A stretch of DNA of 44,827 nucleotides from a virus. The notes beneath the pieces were generated by a model. It searched no databases and was not told where the DNA came from. It saw nothing but the letters and a program-made list of their open reading frames with translations. A program made the translations under genes and the position numbers. Each line of letters starts with the position of its first letter. The stretch's first letter is position 1. Shown piece by piece: positions 2,747-44,018 of the stretch. The stretch spans positions 1-44,827 of IMG/VR virus record IMGVR_UViG_3300037628_000762; one strand, given 5' to 3'.

Positions 2747-3676
2747 TCACATCAGAGAACGCCCATTCATCAACAAAACCTCCGGAGCATCGACCCTCTT
2801 AGCCCCGCGTGTGTTCTGCAAGTGAAGCTGCTTGCTGACCGTGCAGCTCCGCCTAGTCCAAGTCGGGTACAGCGTCGCAAGTTTCGGGTGATCATAGTAG
2901 CTGACTACCACGCGAGCATGCTTGAACCGGTGAAGGTGTTCAGCCAAACGGACGTGATCGTCTTCGTTCAACAGGTCACCATCGTGGAAATCGTGCAGGT
3001 AGCGACTCCCTCCGCCGGAGCCGGAGCGCGAATCGAGTATGTAAGGTGGGTCCACGTAGATCACAACGCCCCTTTCATCGCTGATGCGCGGAATGATATC
3101 GAAAGCGTCACGGTTGAGGATCGTGACTTTCCGGAGGCGCTGATGCCAGGCGGGGATGCTGTCGACCGCTGCCACGAACCGCGTCCCCCCGGATCCCCCG
3201 CCGGGCGTCCAGCGCACCGCCATGGCGAAGTCCTGCCTGACAGAACCGCTGGTGCCGTTGCGGCCAAGCCAGGACAAGATGAAGAACCAGTAGGCACCTA
3301 TCACGGAGTAGCAACCGTAAGAAAGCCAGCCAGGTGAGCAATCGTAGACCCTTGCGACTTCTCGGCGTGCTCGTTCATACAGTTCCTCCGAGCACAACGT
3401 ACCGATCAACCGCTCGTACAACTTTGGCGCCCCGCGGTCTGGATCATCGCTGGCCAGCACCCGAGCCAGATTCACCAGCCCACCGTGCAAATCGTTCACC
3501 GTCTCCATCGCCGCCACCGGCTTGGCCAGCAACACCGCCATCGACCCGCAGAACGGCTCGAAGTACGCCCGATGCGGCCCTAACTCCTGAACGATCGTGG
3601 AAGCCAGCGTCCGCTTTCCCCCGAACCATGGGGCGATGGCTGTTATCGATGCAGTGATTGTGGATTCAAGAGGCAC
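2747..3676 (-). CDS. D12-class (Dam-like) DNA N6-adenine methyltransferase
   Basis: A protein of 309 residues that transfers a methyl group from SAM to adenine N6. Motifs in D12 order: APWFGGKR near residue 16 (SAM site), EPFCGS near 40-45 (motif I FxPFxGS) and DPPY at about 209-212 (catalytic motif IV). The likely start is GTG at 3676, eleven bases inside the preceding gene and preceded by GGAG; an upstream ATG at 3703 lacks a good site. The 5' end duplicates the VRR-NUC 5' end. No restriction partner is adjacent, so protection against host restriction is the likely role. Confidence 0.92.
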   Translation of the reverse strand: MPLESTITASITAIAPWFGGKRTLASTIVQELGPHRAYFEPFCGSMAVLLAKPVAAMETVNDLHGGLVNLARVLASDDPDRGAPKLYERLIGTLCSEELYERARREVARVYDCSPGWLSYGCYSVIGAYWFFILSWLGRNGTSGSVRQDFAMAVRWTPGGGSGGTRFVAAVDSIPAWHQRLRKVTILNRDAFDIIPRISDERGVVIYVDPPYILDSRSGSGGGSRYLHDFHDGDLLNEDDHVRLAEHLHRFKHARVVVSYYDHPKLATLYPTWTRRSCTVSKQLHLQNTRGAKRVDAPEVLLMNGRSLM

Positions 3677-4490
3677 AACGTTTCTCCGTATCCTCCCGGT
3701 CAATCATGTCCCACGGATCAATCATCGACTCATGTCCCAACCGCGCCTTCGCAAACGGCTCCGTTACAGGTAACCCCTCAAGCTCACGCCAAATCGCCCA
3801 CAAGTGCGATAGAAACAACTTGGCCGTACGCCGCAAAGCCATGTTGTTGATCCGACCAAGTGTCCAGTCCGGCTGCTTCGTTGGAGGCGTCGTGTCCGCG
3901 CCCTTCGGCACATGAGCCGCGACAAACTTACTGCTCTTCACGTCGGTCTTCCAGATGACGTTGCCGTTGCGAACCTCGCGCGCAATCAAGTACGCCTTGT
4001 ACGTGTCATAAAGATCACGATACGGACCACCGCACTTGACGAACGACTGAGCGATCTTCCAACAGGTCATCTTCAACTCCGCACTCCAGTTGGCTTTCTG
4101 TCCCTTCTCGCGCTTGACAGCCTTTCCGTCCTTCACGTGAAGACCGGCATACGCCCATAATTTCGCAACGTTCGGGAACCGACCGACGTCACCGATGATC
4201 GCCACCAGAAGGCCGGACAGACGCGGACCAATCCCACGCACTCGAATCAACCACTGTGCGATGATCGGAAGGTCTTTGATCTCTCGCCAGACGATCCGCT
4301 CGTATTCCGTCTCCGTCTTACGCTCCAACTCCAACGCCTCGGCGAAGGTCTTCTCGATGTCCTCCTTGACGACAATGCCATCGCGGACAAGCCGCTGCAT
4401 TCGCAGATCAGATTGAATGCGCAGCTTCTGAGCATCGTACATCCGACGCACGATGATCTTCACATACTCCATCTGGGGTTCAGTTGTCAT
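3666..4490 (-). CDS. Stand-alone Transposase_20 (IS110-type C-terminal domain) protein
   Basis: A protein of 274 residues. Its centre matches the IS116/IS110/IS902 C-terminal domain: LIRVRGIGPRLSGLLVAIIG (about 81-100, a helix-hairpin-helix) and FPNVAKLWAYAGL (about 105-117), then a basic stretch. The N-terminal DEDD RuvC-like nuclease domain of IS110 recombinases is absent; residues 1-80 are instead a helical, charged segment. The serine normally found after the AGL block of active IS110 enzymes is not evident here (HVKDGKAVKREKG); a Ser appears later in NWSAELK. It is therefore probably not an autonomous transposase. No insertion-sequence ends are seen. The start is the ATG at 4490 with AAAGGAG ten bases upstream; the tandem array begins three bases beyond that site. 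Confidence 0.8.
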   Translation of the reverse strand: MTTEPQMEYVKIIVRRMYDAQKLRIQSDLRMQRLVRDGIVVKEDIEKTFAEALELERKTETEYERIVWREIKDLPIIAQWLIRVRGIGPRLSGLLVAIIGDVGRFPNVAKLWAYAGLHVKDGKAVKREKGQKANWSAELKMTCWKIAQSFVKCGGPYRDLYDTYKAYLIAREVRNGNVIWKTDVKSSKFVAAHVPKGADTTPPTKQPDWTLGRINNMALRRTAKLFLSHLWAIWRELEGLPVTEPFAKARLGHESMIDPWDMIDREDTEKRCAS

Positions 4491-4509
4491 AAGAGAATGA
4501 CTCCTTTCG

Positions 4510-4913
4510 GGTTCGCAACCTTTGCTTGGGATACACGAGTTCAGTGGCTCGCAACAGTTCATTGGGATACATTGACACCCTGGCTCGCAATCATTTGTTG
4601 GGATACACACCTACAGTGGCTCGCATGGGCTTTGTGGAATACATGCCGCCTGTGGCTCGCAAACGGAATCTGGGATACATCACCATGATGGCTCGCAGGA
4701 AGTCAATGGGATACACGCCATTGCTGGCTCGCAAATACTCCATGGAATACATTCGGCGTTGGGCTCGCACGACGTCGCTGGGATACAACCGTACCGTGGC
4801 TCGCATGGACTCGCTGGAATACACAATTCTTCTGGCTCGCATTTGGTCTATGGAATACAAGCGCCCATTGGCTCACAATGCTTCTTTGGGATACATTCCG
4901 GTCATGGCTCCTC
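4510..4913. repeat. 36-base bipartite tandem array with 22 variable spacers
   Basis: There are eleven units of exactly 36 bases: motif A (GGCTCGCA), 10 bases, motif B (GGGATACA or GGAATACA), 10 bases. The last spacer base is T in 21 of the 22 spacers, so each motif is effectively 9 bases with a 9-base variable spacer. Motif A is exact in units 2-10, GGTTCGCA in the first (4510-4517) and GGCTCACA in the eleventh (4870-4877); a broken copy GGCTCCTC (4906-4913) overlaps the stop codon of the helicase gene. Motif B is GGG in seven units and GGA in four. All 22 spacers differ. On the transcribed (minus) strand the motifs read TGCGAGCCA and TGTATCCCA. No minus-strand frame stays open through the array. 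Confidence 0.95.
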
Positions 4914-6663
4914 AATTCAACCACTCCCAAACGCTCGAAGTCTGACTGCCGGCAGGACGACAGACATACACGCTCTGCCTTGCACGTGTCAGACCCACGT
5001 ACATCTGACGCACGATCGAGTCCCGACCCTCGACGCTCTCGTTCCAGCCCACCCAGCCCCCATACGACAGATCAGGAAACAGAATCACCACGTCCGACTC
5101 CCCACCTTTGAACGAATGCACCGTTCCCACCCACAACCGCGGATCATCGACCAGAGCCTGCCGGCCGCGGCGACGCAGAACGTTGCACGGAAAACGAGCC
5201 GCCTGCTGCTTCTTCGCAAACACCCGCTCCAACCACCAGGCAAGCAGAGCATCCTGCTCGACCGCGCCACGCAACACCGCACCCAGGAACGCAGCCGGCT
5301 CCGGCTCGAACCAGCCGTCAAGGTCAGCCTGATCCACGATCGTCGTGCTGAGCACCGTCTCACGTGTCTCTTGCAGGACCGCCTCAAGCACCTTCTTTTG
5401 CCCGCGACGAATGACGCCCTTCGCACCGAGGACCGCCGACCAACGGGCGACGTCGAACGGCGACCAGGTGACAACCCTAACATTGGGGTTGTCGATGTTA
5501 GGGTTGTCGGCGTTCACCCCGAAGTCGAAACTGTCGTCCAACCCTGGTACCGGCGCCGCACCCGGAGATGCGCGTGCCTCGGACTGTAATTCTTGTCCTT
5601 CGAACGGCTTGATCAGCGCCAGCAGCCGCTCAGCCATCGTCGTGCCCGTGCCGCCGCGCAGCGGATTCCAGGCGCCCTGCTTCCGGCGCCACGGCTGGGC
5701 GAACGGCAGACCCCGACCGCGCAGCACCTCGAGCACCGGATTGAGCATGTAGCCGCACGTCGCCATGACCATGACGCTACGGCCGGCATCGAGATGCTCC
5801 TCCGCCAACGCGACGATCGGATCTGGATCGCCCCAGCACGCATCCAGCAACTCGGCCGAACCCGCCTCATCCCGCGGAGCGTACTCGATCGGCTCCCAAG
5901 TGCTGAGTTCACGAATCCAACTGCACGCCAAGGCGTGCACCGCCCGAGGGACGCGGTAGCTCTGGCTCAGAACCTCCCGGGCACGCACGCCGTCGAACAT
6001 CTGCGGATATGCCCCCCGCCAACCGTAGAGGCCCTGCCAGGGATCGCCAATCAGCACCAACTGCCCCGCAAGCTCCGCCCAGACGCGCAGCAGCTCCAGC
6101 TCCAGCCGGCTGTGATCCTGAGCCTCGTCCACATAAATCACGTCAGCATCACCCGGCGCGCCGAGGTCGCCAGCCTGCTCGATCACGTCGGAGAAGTCGA
6201 GCAGCCCCGCCCCCTGCTTCCAGCCGTCCCAATCCCGAGCAAACCGCGTGACGCCCTCCGGCCAATCGTCACGCGGGATCATCCGAGCCCGCAGCCGGTG
6301 GTACGCCGAGCTGAGCCTGTCCCCCATCGTGTCGCCGGCCGGCCCGTCGCCGAACGGAGCATCCGAGTCGACCGCCCCGCCGGTCAACTCCCATTCGGGG
6401 TACACCCCGTTCCAGTCCCGGATGGCTGCCCCAACAGCGAGCGCCGGCCTACCGAGCTGCCGGTAGGCGTGACCATGGAGCGTCCCGATCTGTGACTCGG
6501 GGATCGGCATCCCCCGGCCGGCGGCTTCACGGGCTGCCGCCCTGGTGAGCGATGTGACAAGGGGGGCGCGCCCCCCTGACACAGCTTCACGCACTAGGAC
6601 GGAGACTCGACGGGTCTTGCCGGTCCCCGGCGGGCCGACGACGATGCTGGTGGTCACAGACAC
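4912..6663 (-). CDS. UvrD/Rep-like superfamily 1 DNA helicase
   Basis: A protein of 583 residues with the SF1A motif set: Walker A GPPGTGKT (10-17), Walker B VDEAQD (178-183), motif III GDPWQGLYGWRGA (206-218), motif V GTVHSFKGGESDVVIL and motif VI MYVGLTRARQSV near the C-terminus. ATP-driven 3'-5' unwinding is the expected activity. It is shorter than bacterial UvrD (about 720 aa), mainly through a reduced 2B region. The start is GTG at 6663 behind GGAGGG. It shares the replication block with the primase-polymerase. Its stop codon touches the tandem array. Confidence 0.93.
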   Translation of the reverse strand: MSVTTSIVVGPPGTGKTRRVSVLVREAVSGGRAPLVTSLTRAAAREAAGRGMPIPESQIGTLHGHAYRQLGRPALAVGAAIRDWNGVYPEWELTGGAVDSDAPFGDGPAGDTMGDRLSSAYHRLRARMIPRDDWPEGVTRFARDWDGWKQGAGLLDFSDVIEQAGDLGAPGDADVIYVDEAQDHSRLELELLRVWAELAGQLVLIGDPWQGLYGWRGAYPQMFDGVRAREVLSQSYRVPRAVHALACSWIRELSTWEPIEYAPRDEAGSAELLDACWGDPDPIVALAEEHLDAGRSVMVMATCGYMLNPVLEVLRGRGLPFAQPWRRKQGAWNPLRGGTGTTMAERLLALIKPFEGQELQSEARASPGAAPVPGLDDSFDFGVNADNPNIDNPNVRVVTWSPFDVARWSAVLGAKGVIRRGQKKVLEAVLQETRETVLSTTIVDQADLDGWFEPEPAAFLGAVLRGAVEQDALLAWWLERVFAKKQQAARFPCNVLRRRGRQALVDDPRLWVGTVHSFKGGESDVVILFPDLSYGGWVGWNESVEGRDSIVRQMYVGLTRARQSVYVCRPAGSQTSSVWEWLN

Positions 6664-20464: not shown

Positions 20465-23400
20465 GCGGTCCTCGCAAGGTTCTCAAATGACAGGTTCGCC
20501 GGCAGCGTTTTGTGTTTTCGCGGTGTGACCATCGAGATCGGGCCGGCCTTTCGCTTCTTCGCTTCTTCACCCGTCCTGCGACGAATGCTCTGCAAAACGC
20601 CCTTAGGCTTGATCTCCTTGCCACCAGAACGCCGGTACGCCTGATTGTAGATGTCCAGCAGGTCCTGGAACCGATCGTTGCGATTCAAGCTCCTTGTGAG
20701 CGAACCGTATGAAATGCTTTTCGTTCTGCCATTCAGCAACCGATCCATCACACGCGCGACGGCCGGCTCTTTCTCAGCAAGGGCCCGAATCCGGTTGTAC
20801 GCATCCTGACGGGAAACGTAAGGGTTGCGGATGTTCACACCGAAGAGCGCCCCCGCGATGGCAGTCAGTACATGCTCATCGCTCTTGTCGCTGAACGCAC
20901 GCTGAAGACGCTGCCTCCCCCACGTGAAGCTCGTAGGGATCGGTGCGGACTCCCAGAGCATGTGGTTCGTCCACTTGACGATCTTCGTCTTGAGGCCGTC
21001 CTTGGGGTCGACGATTTGCCGACCGGTAAACAGGTTCTTGTTGTAGGTGAGATCGTTCCAGCCGGCTAACGGCGGATTCTGGAGTAGGAACGGCACCTCG
21101 ATCCGACCACTCTTGCCTGTCCCAAGATCGATGATCTTCTGAAGTTCATTCGCCATCGGAATGATGTAACGAAGATCGAGTTTCTGGACGGCACCATCCT
21201 TGTCACGCACAGGGAGAAGCGGCTCGAAGGAACTCCGTCGACTGTCGACGAGGTCCTTCTCGTCTTCATCCATGCCCAGATAGTAAGTCGAGAACGCCGT
21301 CATCGCACCGGGGATCGCCGCCCACTTCGCGAGTTTGAGCGGATGACGAATCATGGCTCGACCGACGATGCGAATTGCCTGCTCGTTGAAGGCAAGGAAG
21401 GGCCCGCCGACCGGCGAGCGGCTTACCTTCTTCGTCCAGGGATGAAGTTCCGCGTAGTTCGGGAACCACCGGTTGACTTCTCGGGCTGCGGTCTTCGCGT
21501 TCATGCCCTGGCTGCGATACTTCAGGAATGCTGCCAGTTTGAAGACCTGATCCTCGGCGTTATAAAGCCGCCCCAGTTTCTCGTGGAGGAGTTGTCCCAA
21601 CTTGATGAGGGCGAGATCCGGAGCGTCCCCTTTCTCCATGCGGACGAGAATCTGCTTGACCTCGTTGCCGTAGTATTCGCCACCGATCACTCCTTCACGC
21701 ACGAGCAAGCGGTAGTCAGACCCCTTCGCAATCAGGTCGGCCATCGCGGCCTTGTAGTATTTCAGGTTGCGTGGATCGTGAACCGCGACGCCGGCAAGAT
21801 CGGTAAACATGAAGTTCCCGAAGATGTTCCGCATGTGAGTCGGCGGGTTCCAGATCGTCTTGGACGCCTTCCACGCTTGGAGGTATGCCCCGTACCACCG
21901 CTCGATGAGCTTCGGAACCTTCGTCAGTTCGTTCACATCCTTCGCGATGTGCTTCGGCAGGTACCGGCCGGCGAGCACGCCGACGACGTTCTTGTCGCCC
22001 TTGACCTGCTCGAGGTTGTTCTCTTTCGCCCATTCGGCAATGACCTTGTCGCCGCCGATAGCTACGTCCGTGGGTGCATCTTCGGCGAACCGCTTGTCGA
22101 GAAGCCTGAAGACTCGCAGCGTCTCGGCGTTGTGCCGGGTCGTCGTGTAGCTCGTTGCCCAAACGAACATCGGGTTACGGCTGAATATCTTGATCCGTTC
22201 TGGCTCGGTAAGCTCTGGAATGAGCTTGACTCGTTTGGCGGCGGCGGCCTTCTTAAGATCACCTGCGGTAACACCACGCTCCAGGGCTTTCTTCTTGATG
22301 ACCGCAGTAAGCTCGTTACGAAGAAGCGCATCGTACGCTTCCCTTGCTTGGGTCTCGGTATCGAACTTGAAATGAGAACGTCCAACCTGCACCGCCCACT
22401 TATCACGTTTGAACTTAGTCTGTTTGTCGCGCAATTTGAGTCGTCGAGAGACGAGATTTTTGACGTGCTCGATTGGTCCTTTCGGAATGAATACCTCTTC
22501 CAAATACTTCCCGATGTTCGCGCGAGTCGATTCAGTGAGCGTCGTTTCACCGTGAACCTTGAGCAGTTCCTGGAGCCAATCGAGACTGGCTTTGTCTTGA
22601 AGAGCCCGGGCCTTGCGGACCCAGTTGGCCTGTCCTTCAGGAAGATCGTCAATCGGATGTCTGCCGACCATCGCTTGATGGATGTTGTAAAGTTCCTCGG
22701 AAGACACCACCTCCTTTTCGAGCCGGGTAATTTCTTTCCCCATCTCGTGCACGTCGACGCCAGCGAGGCCGACGCGGCCGCGACGCTGACGAAAGATGCG
22801 CTTAGCGAGTTCACGCTCCTTAACTCGCTCGGGGCTCCCCCGAACGTAGTTGGTGATCTTCCCCCAGACGTTATAGAGAGCGTCCGTCTCGGCCGGCCCG
22901 GCGACGGCACCCATCGACTCGGCGGACCGCGGCGGGGTGAAGCCGGTGGCCTCGATCAGCTTGTGCTTGCGGTCAAAAGCTTCGGCTTCAGTCTCTTGCT
23001 TGGCACCCTTAACCTCTTGTTCCACGGGCACTTGCGGCGGTTCGGCGGGCAGGGGTTCTACCGGGACCGCTTCTTTGGGCGGTCTTTCTGCGGAGGGAGG
23101 CCGCTCTTCACCTCTTCCCACGCCCGGCGGCTCGCCTCCAGGGGCGGGAGGCCCTGTTTCTTCAACTCCTCGAACCGCTTCTTCACCTGGGGGTATACGC
23201 AGGACATCGGAAGGCTCCTTTGGTGTGACGAGGGGCTCCTTTGGTGTGACGAGGGGCTCCACTACCGCTTTTTTGACCGTCTCCCTTTCTGTTTCACGTG
23301 GAATGACGGGCGTGACCCCCAGAGCCTCGCGCATCGCCTCCTCGCTAACCTCGACCGCCGGCTCGAAGGCAGACGGTTCACGCTGTGGCTGAGTCCGCTC

Positions 23401-40597: not shown

Positions 40598-40783
40598 CTA
40601 TGCGTTTTGACTATCATCCCGATCGTACCGATATTCGCCGCAATACCGACAACGGTATGTAGACGTCTCGTGATCCTCGTCGCTGTACGACAACTCCAAC
40701 AACTCCCAATCGTGCTCGCAAACACTAGCGGGGGCAGGACTCGAACCTGCGACCTCCGGATTATGAGACCGGTACGCTGCCAT
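40598..40783 (-). CDS. Zinc-ribbon-like small protein, start uncertain
   Basis: The C-terminal 40 residues look real: CEHDWELLELSYSDEDHE followed by YRCRYCGEYRYDRDD, a Cx2-type pair of the kind found in small phage zinc proteins. No ATG lies after the tRNA; the first in-frame ATG (40783) is inside the tRNA-Met gene. Either the ORF starts inside the tRNA, uses a rare start, or has lost its 5' end to the tRNA. Confidence 0.5.
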   Translation of the reverse strand: MAAYRSHNPEVAGSSPAPASVCEHDWELLELSYSDEDHETSTYRCRYCGEYRYDRDDSQNA

Positions 40784-40798
40784 CTGCGCTACCCCGCA
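40726..40798 (-). tRNA. tRNA-Met (CAT)
   Basis: A 73-base cloverleaf: acceptor GCGGGG with CCCCGC (first pair T-T), D-arm with AGCGCAGATGGCAGC, anticodon loop CTCATAA (CAT), and T-arm GCAGG-TTCGAGT-CCTGC; A73, no encoded CCA. The anticodon stem lacks the three G-C pairs of initiators (T31-T39 mismatch). An elongator Met tRNA or a CAU isoleucine tRNA are both possible. It overlaps two ORFs. Confidence 0.88.
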
Positions 40799-40937
40799 AC
40801 CGATCCATCTCGCCAAGCATCCACCGGAGCACCCTCGAAAGCTCCGGCTTCACGATGGCGTACAGCTCGGGATGTTCCCGCCGCCAACGCTGCCGGCACG
40901 CCGCTATCTGCTCATCTATGAGGTCCGTTTCGCTCAT
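40761..40937 (-). CDS. Hypothetical protein, 58 aa, ending inside the tRNA
   Basis: MSETDLIDEQIAACRQRWRR..., started by the ATG at 40937 that overlaps the upstream stop (ATGA). The frame runs 38 bases into the tRNA and terminates at the TAA of the anticodon loop (40763-40761). The first 48 residues are helical and credible; the tail is dictated by the tRNA. Confidence 0.62.
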   Translation of the reverse strand: MSETDLIDEQIAACRQRWRREHPELYAIVKPELSRVLRWMLGEMDRLRGSADGSVPVS

Positions 40938-42919: not shown

Positions 42920-43699
42920 TCACCTGGACGCCATAACCCGCTGCCCGATCCATTCGGCAACCTGGGGCACTACGGCGTTGCCATACATTCGGGCGCATGC
43001 AGCTTCAGAAAATCCATCAAGCCATCCCGCAGGAAATCCGGCAAGGATTCTGCGCTCGTTATGGTCCAAGATTCGGAGTCGTTGGACTTCGTGCGCCCAA
43101 ATGTAACAATCGCGGGAATCATATCGTGTCCGGTGTGTAGTAAGACACGGAGTGACCGACCTCGTCCCAAGGCGCGTCGCATAAGCCCCCGAACCATCCG
43201 TGGCGTCCTCAAACATCTCACGGACGAACATCCGGGTTCGTTGAAGACATCCACAAATGAAATCCCGTTGCCGACTTTGCCCCGTAGCCTCTGAGGCATC
43301 CAAGCGGACAATCGCCGTTCCGTATCCGAGGGCGTCAAGTGCAGCATCGAAATCCGTGACAGTTGGTGCAAGAACATTCTCGCGGACCACCCCCCAAGGA
43401 CGTAGTCCTGCGACCACGGTAAGGAAGTATCCGGCCAAGTCGGGTGTCTTTGCGAGCCCATTTGATCGCGCCCGGCTGTGCTGCGGGCAAGGGTCGCCTC
43501 CGCAGATAAGATCGGCTTCGGGCAAGTTGTGTCGTCCGACATTTCGCACGTCCCCAAAGCAGGGCACATCCGGCCAATGTTTCGCCAGCACCCGCCGGCA
43601 GTACGGGTCGATCTCCACATGAGCCACACATCGCATGCCCGCCCGCTCAAGACCGAGAGAGAATCCGCCGATCCCCGCAAACAGGTCGATGAAGGTCAC
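42920..43699 (-). CDS. C5 cytosine DNA methyltransferase
   Basis: A protein of 259 residues with C5-methylase motifs: I FIDLFAGIGGFSLGL (3-17), IV GGDPCPQHS (67-75, catalytic Cys 71; PC retained but flanked by D and P instead of the usual GGPPCQ form), VI ENV (107-109), VIII GQSRQRDF (140-147) and X GNAVVP near the C-terminus. It is short, with a small target-recognition region. The proposed GTG at 43699 overlaps the small upstream ORF (GTGA). It is the last gene of the early operon. Confidence 0.9.
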   Translation of the reverse strand: MTFIDLFAGIGGFSLGLERAGMRCVAHVEIDPYCRRVLAKHWPDVPCFGDVRNVGRHNLPEADLICGGDPCPQHSRARSNGLAKTPDLAGYFLTVVAGLRPWGVVRENVLAPTVTDFDAALDALGYGTAIVRLDASEATGQSRQRDFICGCLQRTRMFVREMFEDATDGSGAYATRLGTRSVTPCLTTHRTRYDSRDCYIWAHEVQRLRILDHNERRILAGFPAGWLDGFSEAACARMYGNAVVPQVAEWIGQRVMASR

Positions 43700-43809
43700 C
43701 TCAACACCGCCCTCGCCTCCCCGGATGGAGTGTGACGATGGCCAACATAAATCGCTGAACGATGCTCGCAGGCCGACTTCGCGGGATTCTTGAGCTTGAC
43801 GGCGGTCAT
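43696..43809 (-). CDS. Hypothetical short peptide, 37 aa
   Basis: MTAVKLKNPAKSACEHRSAI..., coupled by ATGA and GTGA overlaps to both neighbours, which favours real translation. The Cys and several His residues (CEHR, GHRH) could bind a metal. No family. Confidence 0.55.
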   Translation of the reverse strand: MTAVKLKNPAKSACEHRSAIYVGHRHTPSGEARAVLR

Positions 43810-44018
43810 CCGGACAGCTCCGCCGACAGACAAGCCCGACGCCTACAATCAGAACAGTTTGCAGCTTCAATATCCCCGGAATCATATGTGGTAGCACGAC
43901 GTAGGACGGTCAACCCACAATACGCAAGCACGCAAACGCCCCCGTCGCCAAAGTCTGTTTGACCTATGTGGATCACTTTCGGCTCCAATTCCCGATTGAG
44001 TTTTTGTAAGTCGGTCAT
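43806..44018 (-). CDS. Hypothetical Cys-containing protein, 70 aa
   Basis: MTDLQKLNRELEPKVIHIGQ..., with CSDCRRRAC near the C-terminus and an earlier CVLAYCG, a likely zinc site. The family is not recognised, although similar small proteins occur in phages. The start at 44018 overlaps the preceding stop (ATGA). Confidence 0.72.
   Translation of the reverse strand: MTDLQKLNRELEPKVIHIGQTDFGDGGVCVLAYCGLTVLRRATTYDSGDIEAANCSDCRRRACLSAELSG

What the first reader, a model, noticed from the sequence alone, without database searches (positions are those of the whole stretch)
4510..4913. Bipartite 36-base tandem array with 22 different 9-base spacers abutting a Transposase_20 gene
Seen directly: eleven units alternate GGCTCGCA and GG(G/A)ATACA with exactly 10 bases between motifs throughout, while no two spacers are alike. 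Ordinary tandem duplication would copy spacers too, so either motif and spacing are under strong selection or the spacers are actively replaced or acquired. On the transcribed strand the array ends three bases before the ribosome site of a protein carrying only the IS110 C-terminal domain. IS110 recombinases are guided by structured bridge RNAs with short programmable loops; a link between that domain and rows of 9-base variable segments is an attractive but unproven idea. Simpler options are a multi-site protein-binding array or a regulatory mRNA leader. The 18-base step (about 1.7 helical turns) does not favour stacking on one DNA face. The plus frame reading xTG-GCT-CGC stays open, but about 12% of random arrays would.
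Basis: partly seen in the sequence, partly recalled or inferred. Interest (0 to 1): 0.93.

Follow-up and report, generated by a model that had tools for sequence, protein, structure and literature searches.

The report
TIGR guide-RNA array beside phage TasA
This is a phage-borne TIGR-Tas system: a row of eleven two-part guide sequences beside the small RNA-binding protein (TasA) that should carry each guide to a matching DNA site; it is a clear new member of a system first described in 2025 whose natural targets are still unknown.

Summary
Read on the minus strand, the region is a dual-repeat TIGR (Tandem Interspaced Guide RNA) array. It has 12 edge repeats (TGCGAGCCA) alternating with 11 loop repeats (TGTAT[C/T]CCA). 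They enclose 22 different 9-nt spacers, which makes eleven 36-nt guide units. The array fills the whole gap between a UvrD-like helicase gene and a 274-aa gene. That protein is a solo Nop-domain Tas protein (TasA). Its nearest solved relatives are TIGR-TasR (E 6.6e-37) and TasH (E 5.6e-12); IS110-type transposases are much weaker. An AlphaFold model (pLDDT 87) gives the same ranking. The same edge repeat occurs in 69 stretches of IMG/VR DNA. Of 83 array-bearing loci, 61 have a Tas gene, always on the same strand, at a median distance of 17 bp. Spacers differ between distant relatives. Near-identical relatives mostly keep them, except one pair in which a single spacer was replaced. Most likely mechanism: the transcript is cut into 36-nt tigRNAs that guide a TasA dimer to 18-bp DNA sites, where it binds without cutting. 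No convincing natural target was found. Verdict: new member of a known kind (Faure et al. 2025).

The parts
4509..4913 (-). TIGR dual-repeat array: 23 repeats (12 edge incl. two degenerate ends, 11 loop), 22 spacers, 11 guide units of 36 nt
   Evidence: layout rules in PMC12045711
4905..4913 (-). first (5') edge repeat, truncated/degenerate GAGGAGCCA: keeps the box C end (GAGCCA), lacks box D (TG); overlaps the helicase stop codon
   Evidence: truncated 5' edge is typical of TIGR arrays
4869..4904 (-). guide unit 1: spacer A TGACCGGAA, loop TGTATCCCA, spacer B AAGAAGCAT, next edge TGTGAGCCA; units 2-11 follow every 36 bases down to 4509
4653..4697 (-). guide unit 7 with both edges: spacer A TCATGGTGA (4680-4688), loop 4671-4679, spacer B GATTCCGTT (4662-4670); predicted 18-bp target TCATGGTGAAACGGAATC
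4509..4517 (-). last (3') edge repeat, degenerate TGCGAACCC: keeps box D, box C altered
4501..4508 (-). ribosome-binding site GAAAGGAG of tasA, directly after the array; no terminator between
3666..4490 (-). tasA: 274-aa solo Nop-domain Tas protein (Pfam Transposase_20, PHROG 4285 'transposase'); N-terminal coiled-coil helices, no nuclease domain
4912..6663 (-). UvrD/Rep-like helicase gene immediately upstream; the array begins at its stop codon, so the array is probably co-transcribed
2747..3703 (-). D12-class adenine DNA methyltransferase gene downstream of tasA, same strand (context only)

Best explanation
A TIGR-TasA system carried by a tailed phage. Shown by sequence: the dual-repeat array, its box D (UG) / box C (CCA) ends, the extra C-G pair only in the edge repeat, and an adjacent solo Nop protein of the Tas family. 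Inferred from TIGR systems tested elsewhere: the array is transcribed on the minus strand, probably together with the helicase and tasA genes. TasA binds the transcript, and an unidentified host RNase cuts in the middle of each edge repeat, giving eleven 36-nt tigRNAs. A TasA dimer holds one tigRNA. Spacer A pairs with one DNA strand and spacer B with the other at an 18-bp site (A followed by the reverse complement of B). As TasA has no nuclease, it would bind, unwind and sharply bend the site, and so block transcription or replication of a competing element or regulate a host or phage gene.
For: Array anatomy matches every array rule in PMC12045711 except the terminator. phmmer: TasR 9mty E 6.6e-37, TasH 5.6e-12, IS621 only 0.61; profile search: TasR 7e-71, TasH 2.6e-37, IS110-type 1e-4. 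AlphaFold model pLDDT 87, pTM 0.84; the best 11 Foldseek hits are TasR/TasH-tigRNA complexes, then IS621/ISCro4. The same edge repeat is found in 69 IMG/VR stretches and about 10 real genome loci. Of 83 array loci, 61 have a Tas ORF, all on the same strand, median gap 17 bp. The nearest relative (59% identity) has arrays with the identical edge repeat on both sides of its tasA, in an otherwise mostly unrelated phage. The array RNA does not fold beyond chance, as expected for dual-repeat tigRNAs.
Against: No rho-independent terminator follows the array, unlike the typical layout. Expression, processing and DNA binding cannot be tested here. No target exceeds chance in the phage's own genome, in 0.7-1.2 Mb of related phage DNA, or in collection scans. 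The loop repeat TGTAT[CT]CCA is less A-rich than in nearly all relatives.
Confidence: 0.95

Rival explanations
1. The array is a multi-site DNA-binding array (iteron- or centromere-like), bound as DNA by TasA or another protein to control replication, partition or tasA transcription.
For: Short identical repeats at fixed 18-base spacing directly upstream of a gene for a nucleic-acid-binding protein. DNA binding cannot be excluded by sequence.
Against: Two alternating repeats with the UG/CCA ends that Tas proteins read as RNA; edge and loop differ by the extra pair seen in the TasR-tigRNA structure; always on the coding strand of tas (61 of 61), which a DNA-binding array would not need; the protein family is known to bind tigRNA.
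Confidence: 0.03
2. A structured regulatory mRNA leader of the Transposase_20-type gene (riboswitch-like or a bridge RNA of a broken IS110 element).
For: Position between the upstream gene and the ribosome site; homology of the Nop domain to IS110 transposases.
Against: No fold beyond shuffles, z +1.08; no Rfam match at the array; arrays also lie downstream of tas in most relatives (38 down only, 13 up only, 10 both); no DEDD domain.
Confidence: 0.01
3. A repetitive peptide-coding stretch (the plus frame GCT-CGC or the minus frame C-x-P-x3-C-x-P).
For: One plus frame is open through the array.
Against: Minus frame C-x-P carries stops in spacers; relatives keep repeats but not spacers; some relatives have 8- or 10-nt spacers that break the frame.
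Confidence: 0.01

Closest known systems
TIGR-TasA, dual-repeat type (Flavonifractor plautii FpTIGR and relatives; Faure et al. 2025, PMC12045711)
   Same: Solo Nop protein; alternating edge and loop repeats, 9-nt spacers, 36-nt units, UG...CCA ends, truncated edges at array ends, phage-borne.
   Different: Array sits upstream of tasA inside an operon-like row with no terminator; loop repeat is UAUC/UAUU rather than A-rich.
TIGR-TasR (Thermoproteota TaTasR, PDB 9MTY)
   Same: Nop domain is the nearest solved relative; same box motifs and edge-specific pair.
   Different: TasR has an N-terminal RuvC nuclease; the window protein starts at the coiled-coil and has none.
TIGR-TasH (Salicola phage CGphi29, PDB 9W04 and others)
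   Same: Nop fold and tigRNA array in a phage.
   Different: HNH nuclease fused; different repeats and 8-nt spacers (16 nt in all per guide).
IS110 family (IS621, bridge RNA)
   Same: Shares the Transposase_20/Nop-like RNA-binding domain and the split-guide principle.
   Different: No DEDD domain, no single bridge RNA, much weaker sequence and fold match.

Membership tests
TIGR-Tas, dual-repeat array with TasA | two distinct alternating 8-12-nt repeats separated by about 9-nt variable spacers | tested here: met
   9-nt edge and loop repeats, 22 distinct 9-nt spacers
TIGR-Tas, dual-repeat array with TasA | both repeats begin UG (box D) and end CCA (box C) | tested here: met
   all 21 internal repeats begin TG and 20 end CCA (one CCC); rule
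TIGR-Tas, dual-repeat array with TasA | edge repeat has an extra base pair between the boxes, loop repeat does not | tested here: met
   edge C-G (one U-G) at positions 3 and 6; loop U/C or U/U; 521 of 526 edge repeats in the set can pair
TIGR-Tas, dual-repeat array with TasA | 5' and 3' truncated edge repeats at array ends | tested here: met
   GAGGAGCCA and TGCGAACCC
TIGR-Tas, dual-repeat array with TasA | adjacent Nop-domain protein of the Tas family, TasA having no nuclease domain | tested here: met
   274 aa, no RuvC or HNH domain
TIGR-Tas, dual-repeat array with TasA | rho-independent terminator after the array (typical, not defining) | tested here: not met
   no terminator between array and tasA; the nearest relative's upstream array likewise runs into tasA
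TIGR-Tas, dual-repeat array with TasA | processing into 36-nt tigRNAs bound by Tas | not testable with these tools
   needs RNA sequencing
TIGR-Tas, dual-repeat array with TasA | tandem-spacer DNA targeting (A on one strand, B on the other) | tested here: inconclusive
   matches in own genome, related phages and collections are at chance level
IS110 transposon | DEDD RuvC-like catalytic domain N-terminal to Transposase_20 | tested here: not met
   Pfam finds only Transposase_20; the model begins with the coiled-coil helices
IS110 transposon | structured bridge RNA from the element's non-coding end | tested here: not met
   adjacent non-coding DNA is an unstructured dual-repeat array
CRISPR array | one repeat type of about 25-36 nt with spacers of similar length, cas genes | tested here: not met
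   9-nt alternating repeats; no cas hit among the genes scanned

The most novel reading that the evidence does not exclude
TIGR arrays of this edge-repeat family exchange single 9-nt spacers on a population time scale by an unknown adaptation route. In two phage contigs of the TasR branch (L060/L071), which differ at 8 positions over 6.5 kb, seven differences lie in two spacer B positions, one of them a wholesale spacer replacement. If the window's TasA array evolves the same way, its guides are recently selected against a co-infecting element.
Probability: 0.2. Interest if true: 0.75.

Novelty: new member of a known kind. Interest (0 to 1): 0.38.

Why it matters
TIGR-Tas is a recently found class of compact, motif-free RNA-guided DNA-binding systems, related to IS110 and to box C/D snoRNPs. 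Its natural targets, spacer source and TasA function are unknown. This phage adds a compact, operon-embedded TasA example with eleven guides. The edge-repeat search gives about 385 distinct guides in one comparable family, including cases of guides shared, drifting or replaced between relatives, which is material for finding targets.

Tried and rejected
Self-targeting: the 11 cognate A/B pairs match the phage genome no better than mismatched pairs, in either geometry, with gaps 0-2. Targets in TIGR-bearing phages: 385 guides against 0.7 Mb, no excess over permuted pairs; a peptide-level search was also negative, p 0.2-0.3 for the paper's geometry. IMG/VR exact 18-mer scans for six guides gave 4, 2, 0, 0, 3 and 4 hits, about the chance rate I estimate (1-2 independent lineages each); hits in motifs that look conserved (QIPFHHE phosphoesterase-like, RPKAPI exonuclease-like, GDHL tail-protein-like; names from my own knowledge) are leads only. 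Isolate phages: one exact match, unit 10 in a Bacillus phage endolysin gene, with E 0.6. Arrays conserved more than flanks in L022/L048: the adjoining flanks of that segment are also identical, so it looks like a recently exchanged block, not selection on spacers. Host identification from relatives failed: the TasA neighbours lie in mostly unrelated phages. Some genome hits of the array pattern are ordinary 18-base repeats without Tas.

Full report
Observation. The minus strand of window 4509-4913 contains 23 nine-base repeats at an exact 18-base step separated by 22 different nine-base spacers. Repeats alternate: edge TGCGAGCCA (variants TGTGAGCCA, TGCGAGCCC) and loop TGTATCCCA or TGTATTCCA. 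Chains of TG-N4-CCA at 18 bases reach 13 in the window and at most 2 in 50 dinucleotide shuffles. The array starts on the stop codon of a UvrD-like helicase ORF (4912-6663, minus) and ends 18 nt before the ATG of a 274-aa gene (3666-4490), whose ribosome site GAAAGGAG follows the last repeat at once.

What the gene is. Pfam calls it Transposase_20 and PHROGs 'transposase', but it has only the RNA-binding part. Single-sequence search of PDB chains gives TIGR-TasR 9mty at 6.6e-37 and TasH at 5.6e-12, IS621 only 0.61. A profile of 26 relatives gives 7e-71, 2.6e-37 and about 1e-4. The AlphaFold2 model (pLDDT 87.1, pTM 0.84) matches TasR and TasH tigRNA complexes as its first 11 Foldseek hits, ahead of IS621 and ISCro4. 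There is no RuvC or HNH domain, so it is a TasA.

What the array is. Faure et al. 2025 (PMC12045711) define TIGR arrays: alternating 8-12-nt edge and loop repeats, about 9-nt spacers, usually 5-15 units, UG (box D) at the start and CCA (box C) at the end of each repeat, an extra pair in the edge repeat only, truncated edge repeats at the ends, and a Nop-domain gene beside the array. All of these are met here. Their typical terminator after the array is absent: the array runs straight into tasA, as does the upstream array of its nearest relative. The array RNA does not fold better than shuffles (z +1.08) and no Rfam family matches it, which argues against a structured leader.

Relatives. The nearest TasA (59%, L009) has arrays on both sides with the identical edge repeat and loop TGAAACCCA. 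Searching the edge-loop-edge pattern found 69 IMG/VR stretches and 31 genome stretches; some of the latter are ordinary repeats without Tas. In 83 loci with a dual array, 61 have a Tas ORF, all on the same strand, median gap 17 bp; half of the other 22 have the array within 600 bases of the end of the locus. Whole-contig comparison shows the window phage shares with its TasA neighbours only tasA, a DUF5131 gene in two of them and a weak terminase match in one: the module appears to move between unrelated phages. The TGTAT loop of the window was not seen among the main repeats of any other locus.

Spacer dynamics. Among related contigs (L012, L016, L022, L032, L045, L048, L049) some guides are shared, some drift by a few bases and others are unique; identical arrays sit in identical flanks. 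Near-identical pairs mostly keep their arrays. The exception is L060/L071 (a TasR system): of 8 differences in 6.5 kb, six form the replacement of one spacer B (ATGACAAAA to AGGCCGATGC) and one is a point change in the next spacer B. Assembly error in a repeat cannot be fully ruled out.

Targets. The paper's 8-nt 3' overhangs and its 'C-5' cleavage rule imply a target of A followed by the reverse complement of B (my derivation, and the paper's wording of the cut site differs between sections). No excess of such sites was found in the phage itself, in related phages, or at peptide level. Exact scans of IMG/VR for six guides gave chance-like numbers. Unit 7 matched one phosphoesterase-like gene motif in two diverged phage lineages, and units 2 and 9 fell in motifs that look conserved; these are leads without statistical support. 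Isolate phages gave nothing beyond chance.

Mechanism. Transcription from upstream, TasA-dependent processing into eleven 36-nt tigRNAs, and DNA binding by a TasA dimer with one guide, each spacer on one strand, without cleavage. The structural and sequence parts are shown; processing, binding and purpose are inferred from tested TIGR systems. The paper's suggestions for TasA (blocking replication or transcription of competitors, aiding integration) remain open; I favour blocking of competing elements, with low confidence in that last step.

Noticed in passing
L060 2011-2053 (oriented minus strand) vs L071: Two phage contigs (TasR type) with 8 differences in 6.5 kb; seven lie in two spacer B positions, one spacer replaced as a block. 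Possible evidence of single-spacer turnover in TIGR arrays.
   Followed up: partly
L090 2565-2928 (Rhodococcus phage Peregrin), L087 2685-2931 (Mycobacterium phage Rufus): Upstream of TasA-like genes annotated hypothetical or transposase lie four stem-loop units (arms 9-25 nt, 30-44 nt between), like the TIGR stem-loop arrays; such isolates with known hosts would be good test systems.
   Followed up: partly
L089 3510-3880 (Microcystis phage Mvi-JY20): Dual-repeat TIGR-like array (ATGCGAGCC / ACGAAACCC) followed by a terminator-like hairpin, next to an unannotated Tas gene in an isolate phage.
   Followed up: no
L013, L040, L057, L059 (IMGVR_UViG_3300036863_000086): One 72-kb viral contig carries many separate TIGR sub-arrays with varied loops.
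   Followed up: no
L115, L119: A Thermoplasmatota MAG contig with arrays totalling dozens of repeats on both sides of a Tas gene.
   Followed up: no
L118 4188-5006: TasA 53% identical to the window's, with a long downstream array, on a 115-kb contig binned as Planctomycetota.
   Followed up: partly
window 42920-43897, 40725-40799, 741-1727: C5 cytosine DNA methyltransferase gene, a tRNA-Met gene, and a DUF5131 gene, the last also within about 5 kb of tasA in two TasA-bearing relatives.
   Followed up: partly
window 23213-23260: A perfect 21-base tandem repeat of 2.3 copies inside a 1532-aa ORF.
   Followed up: no
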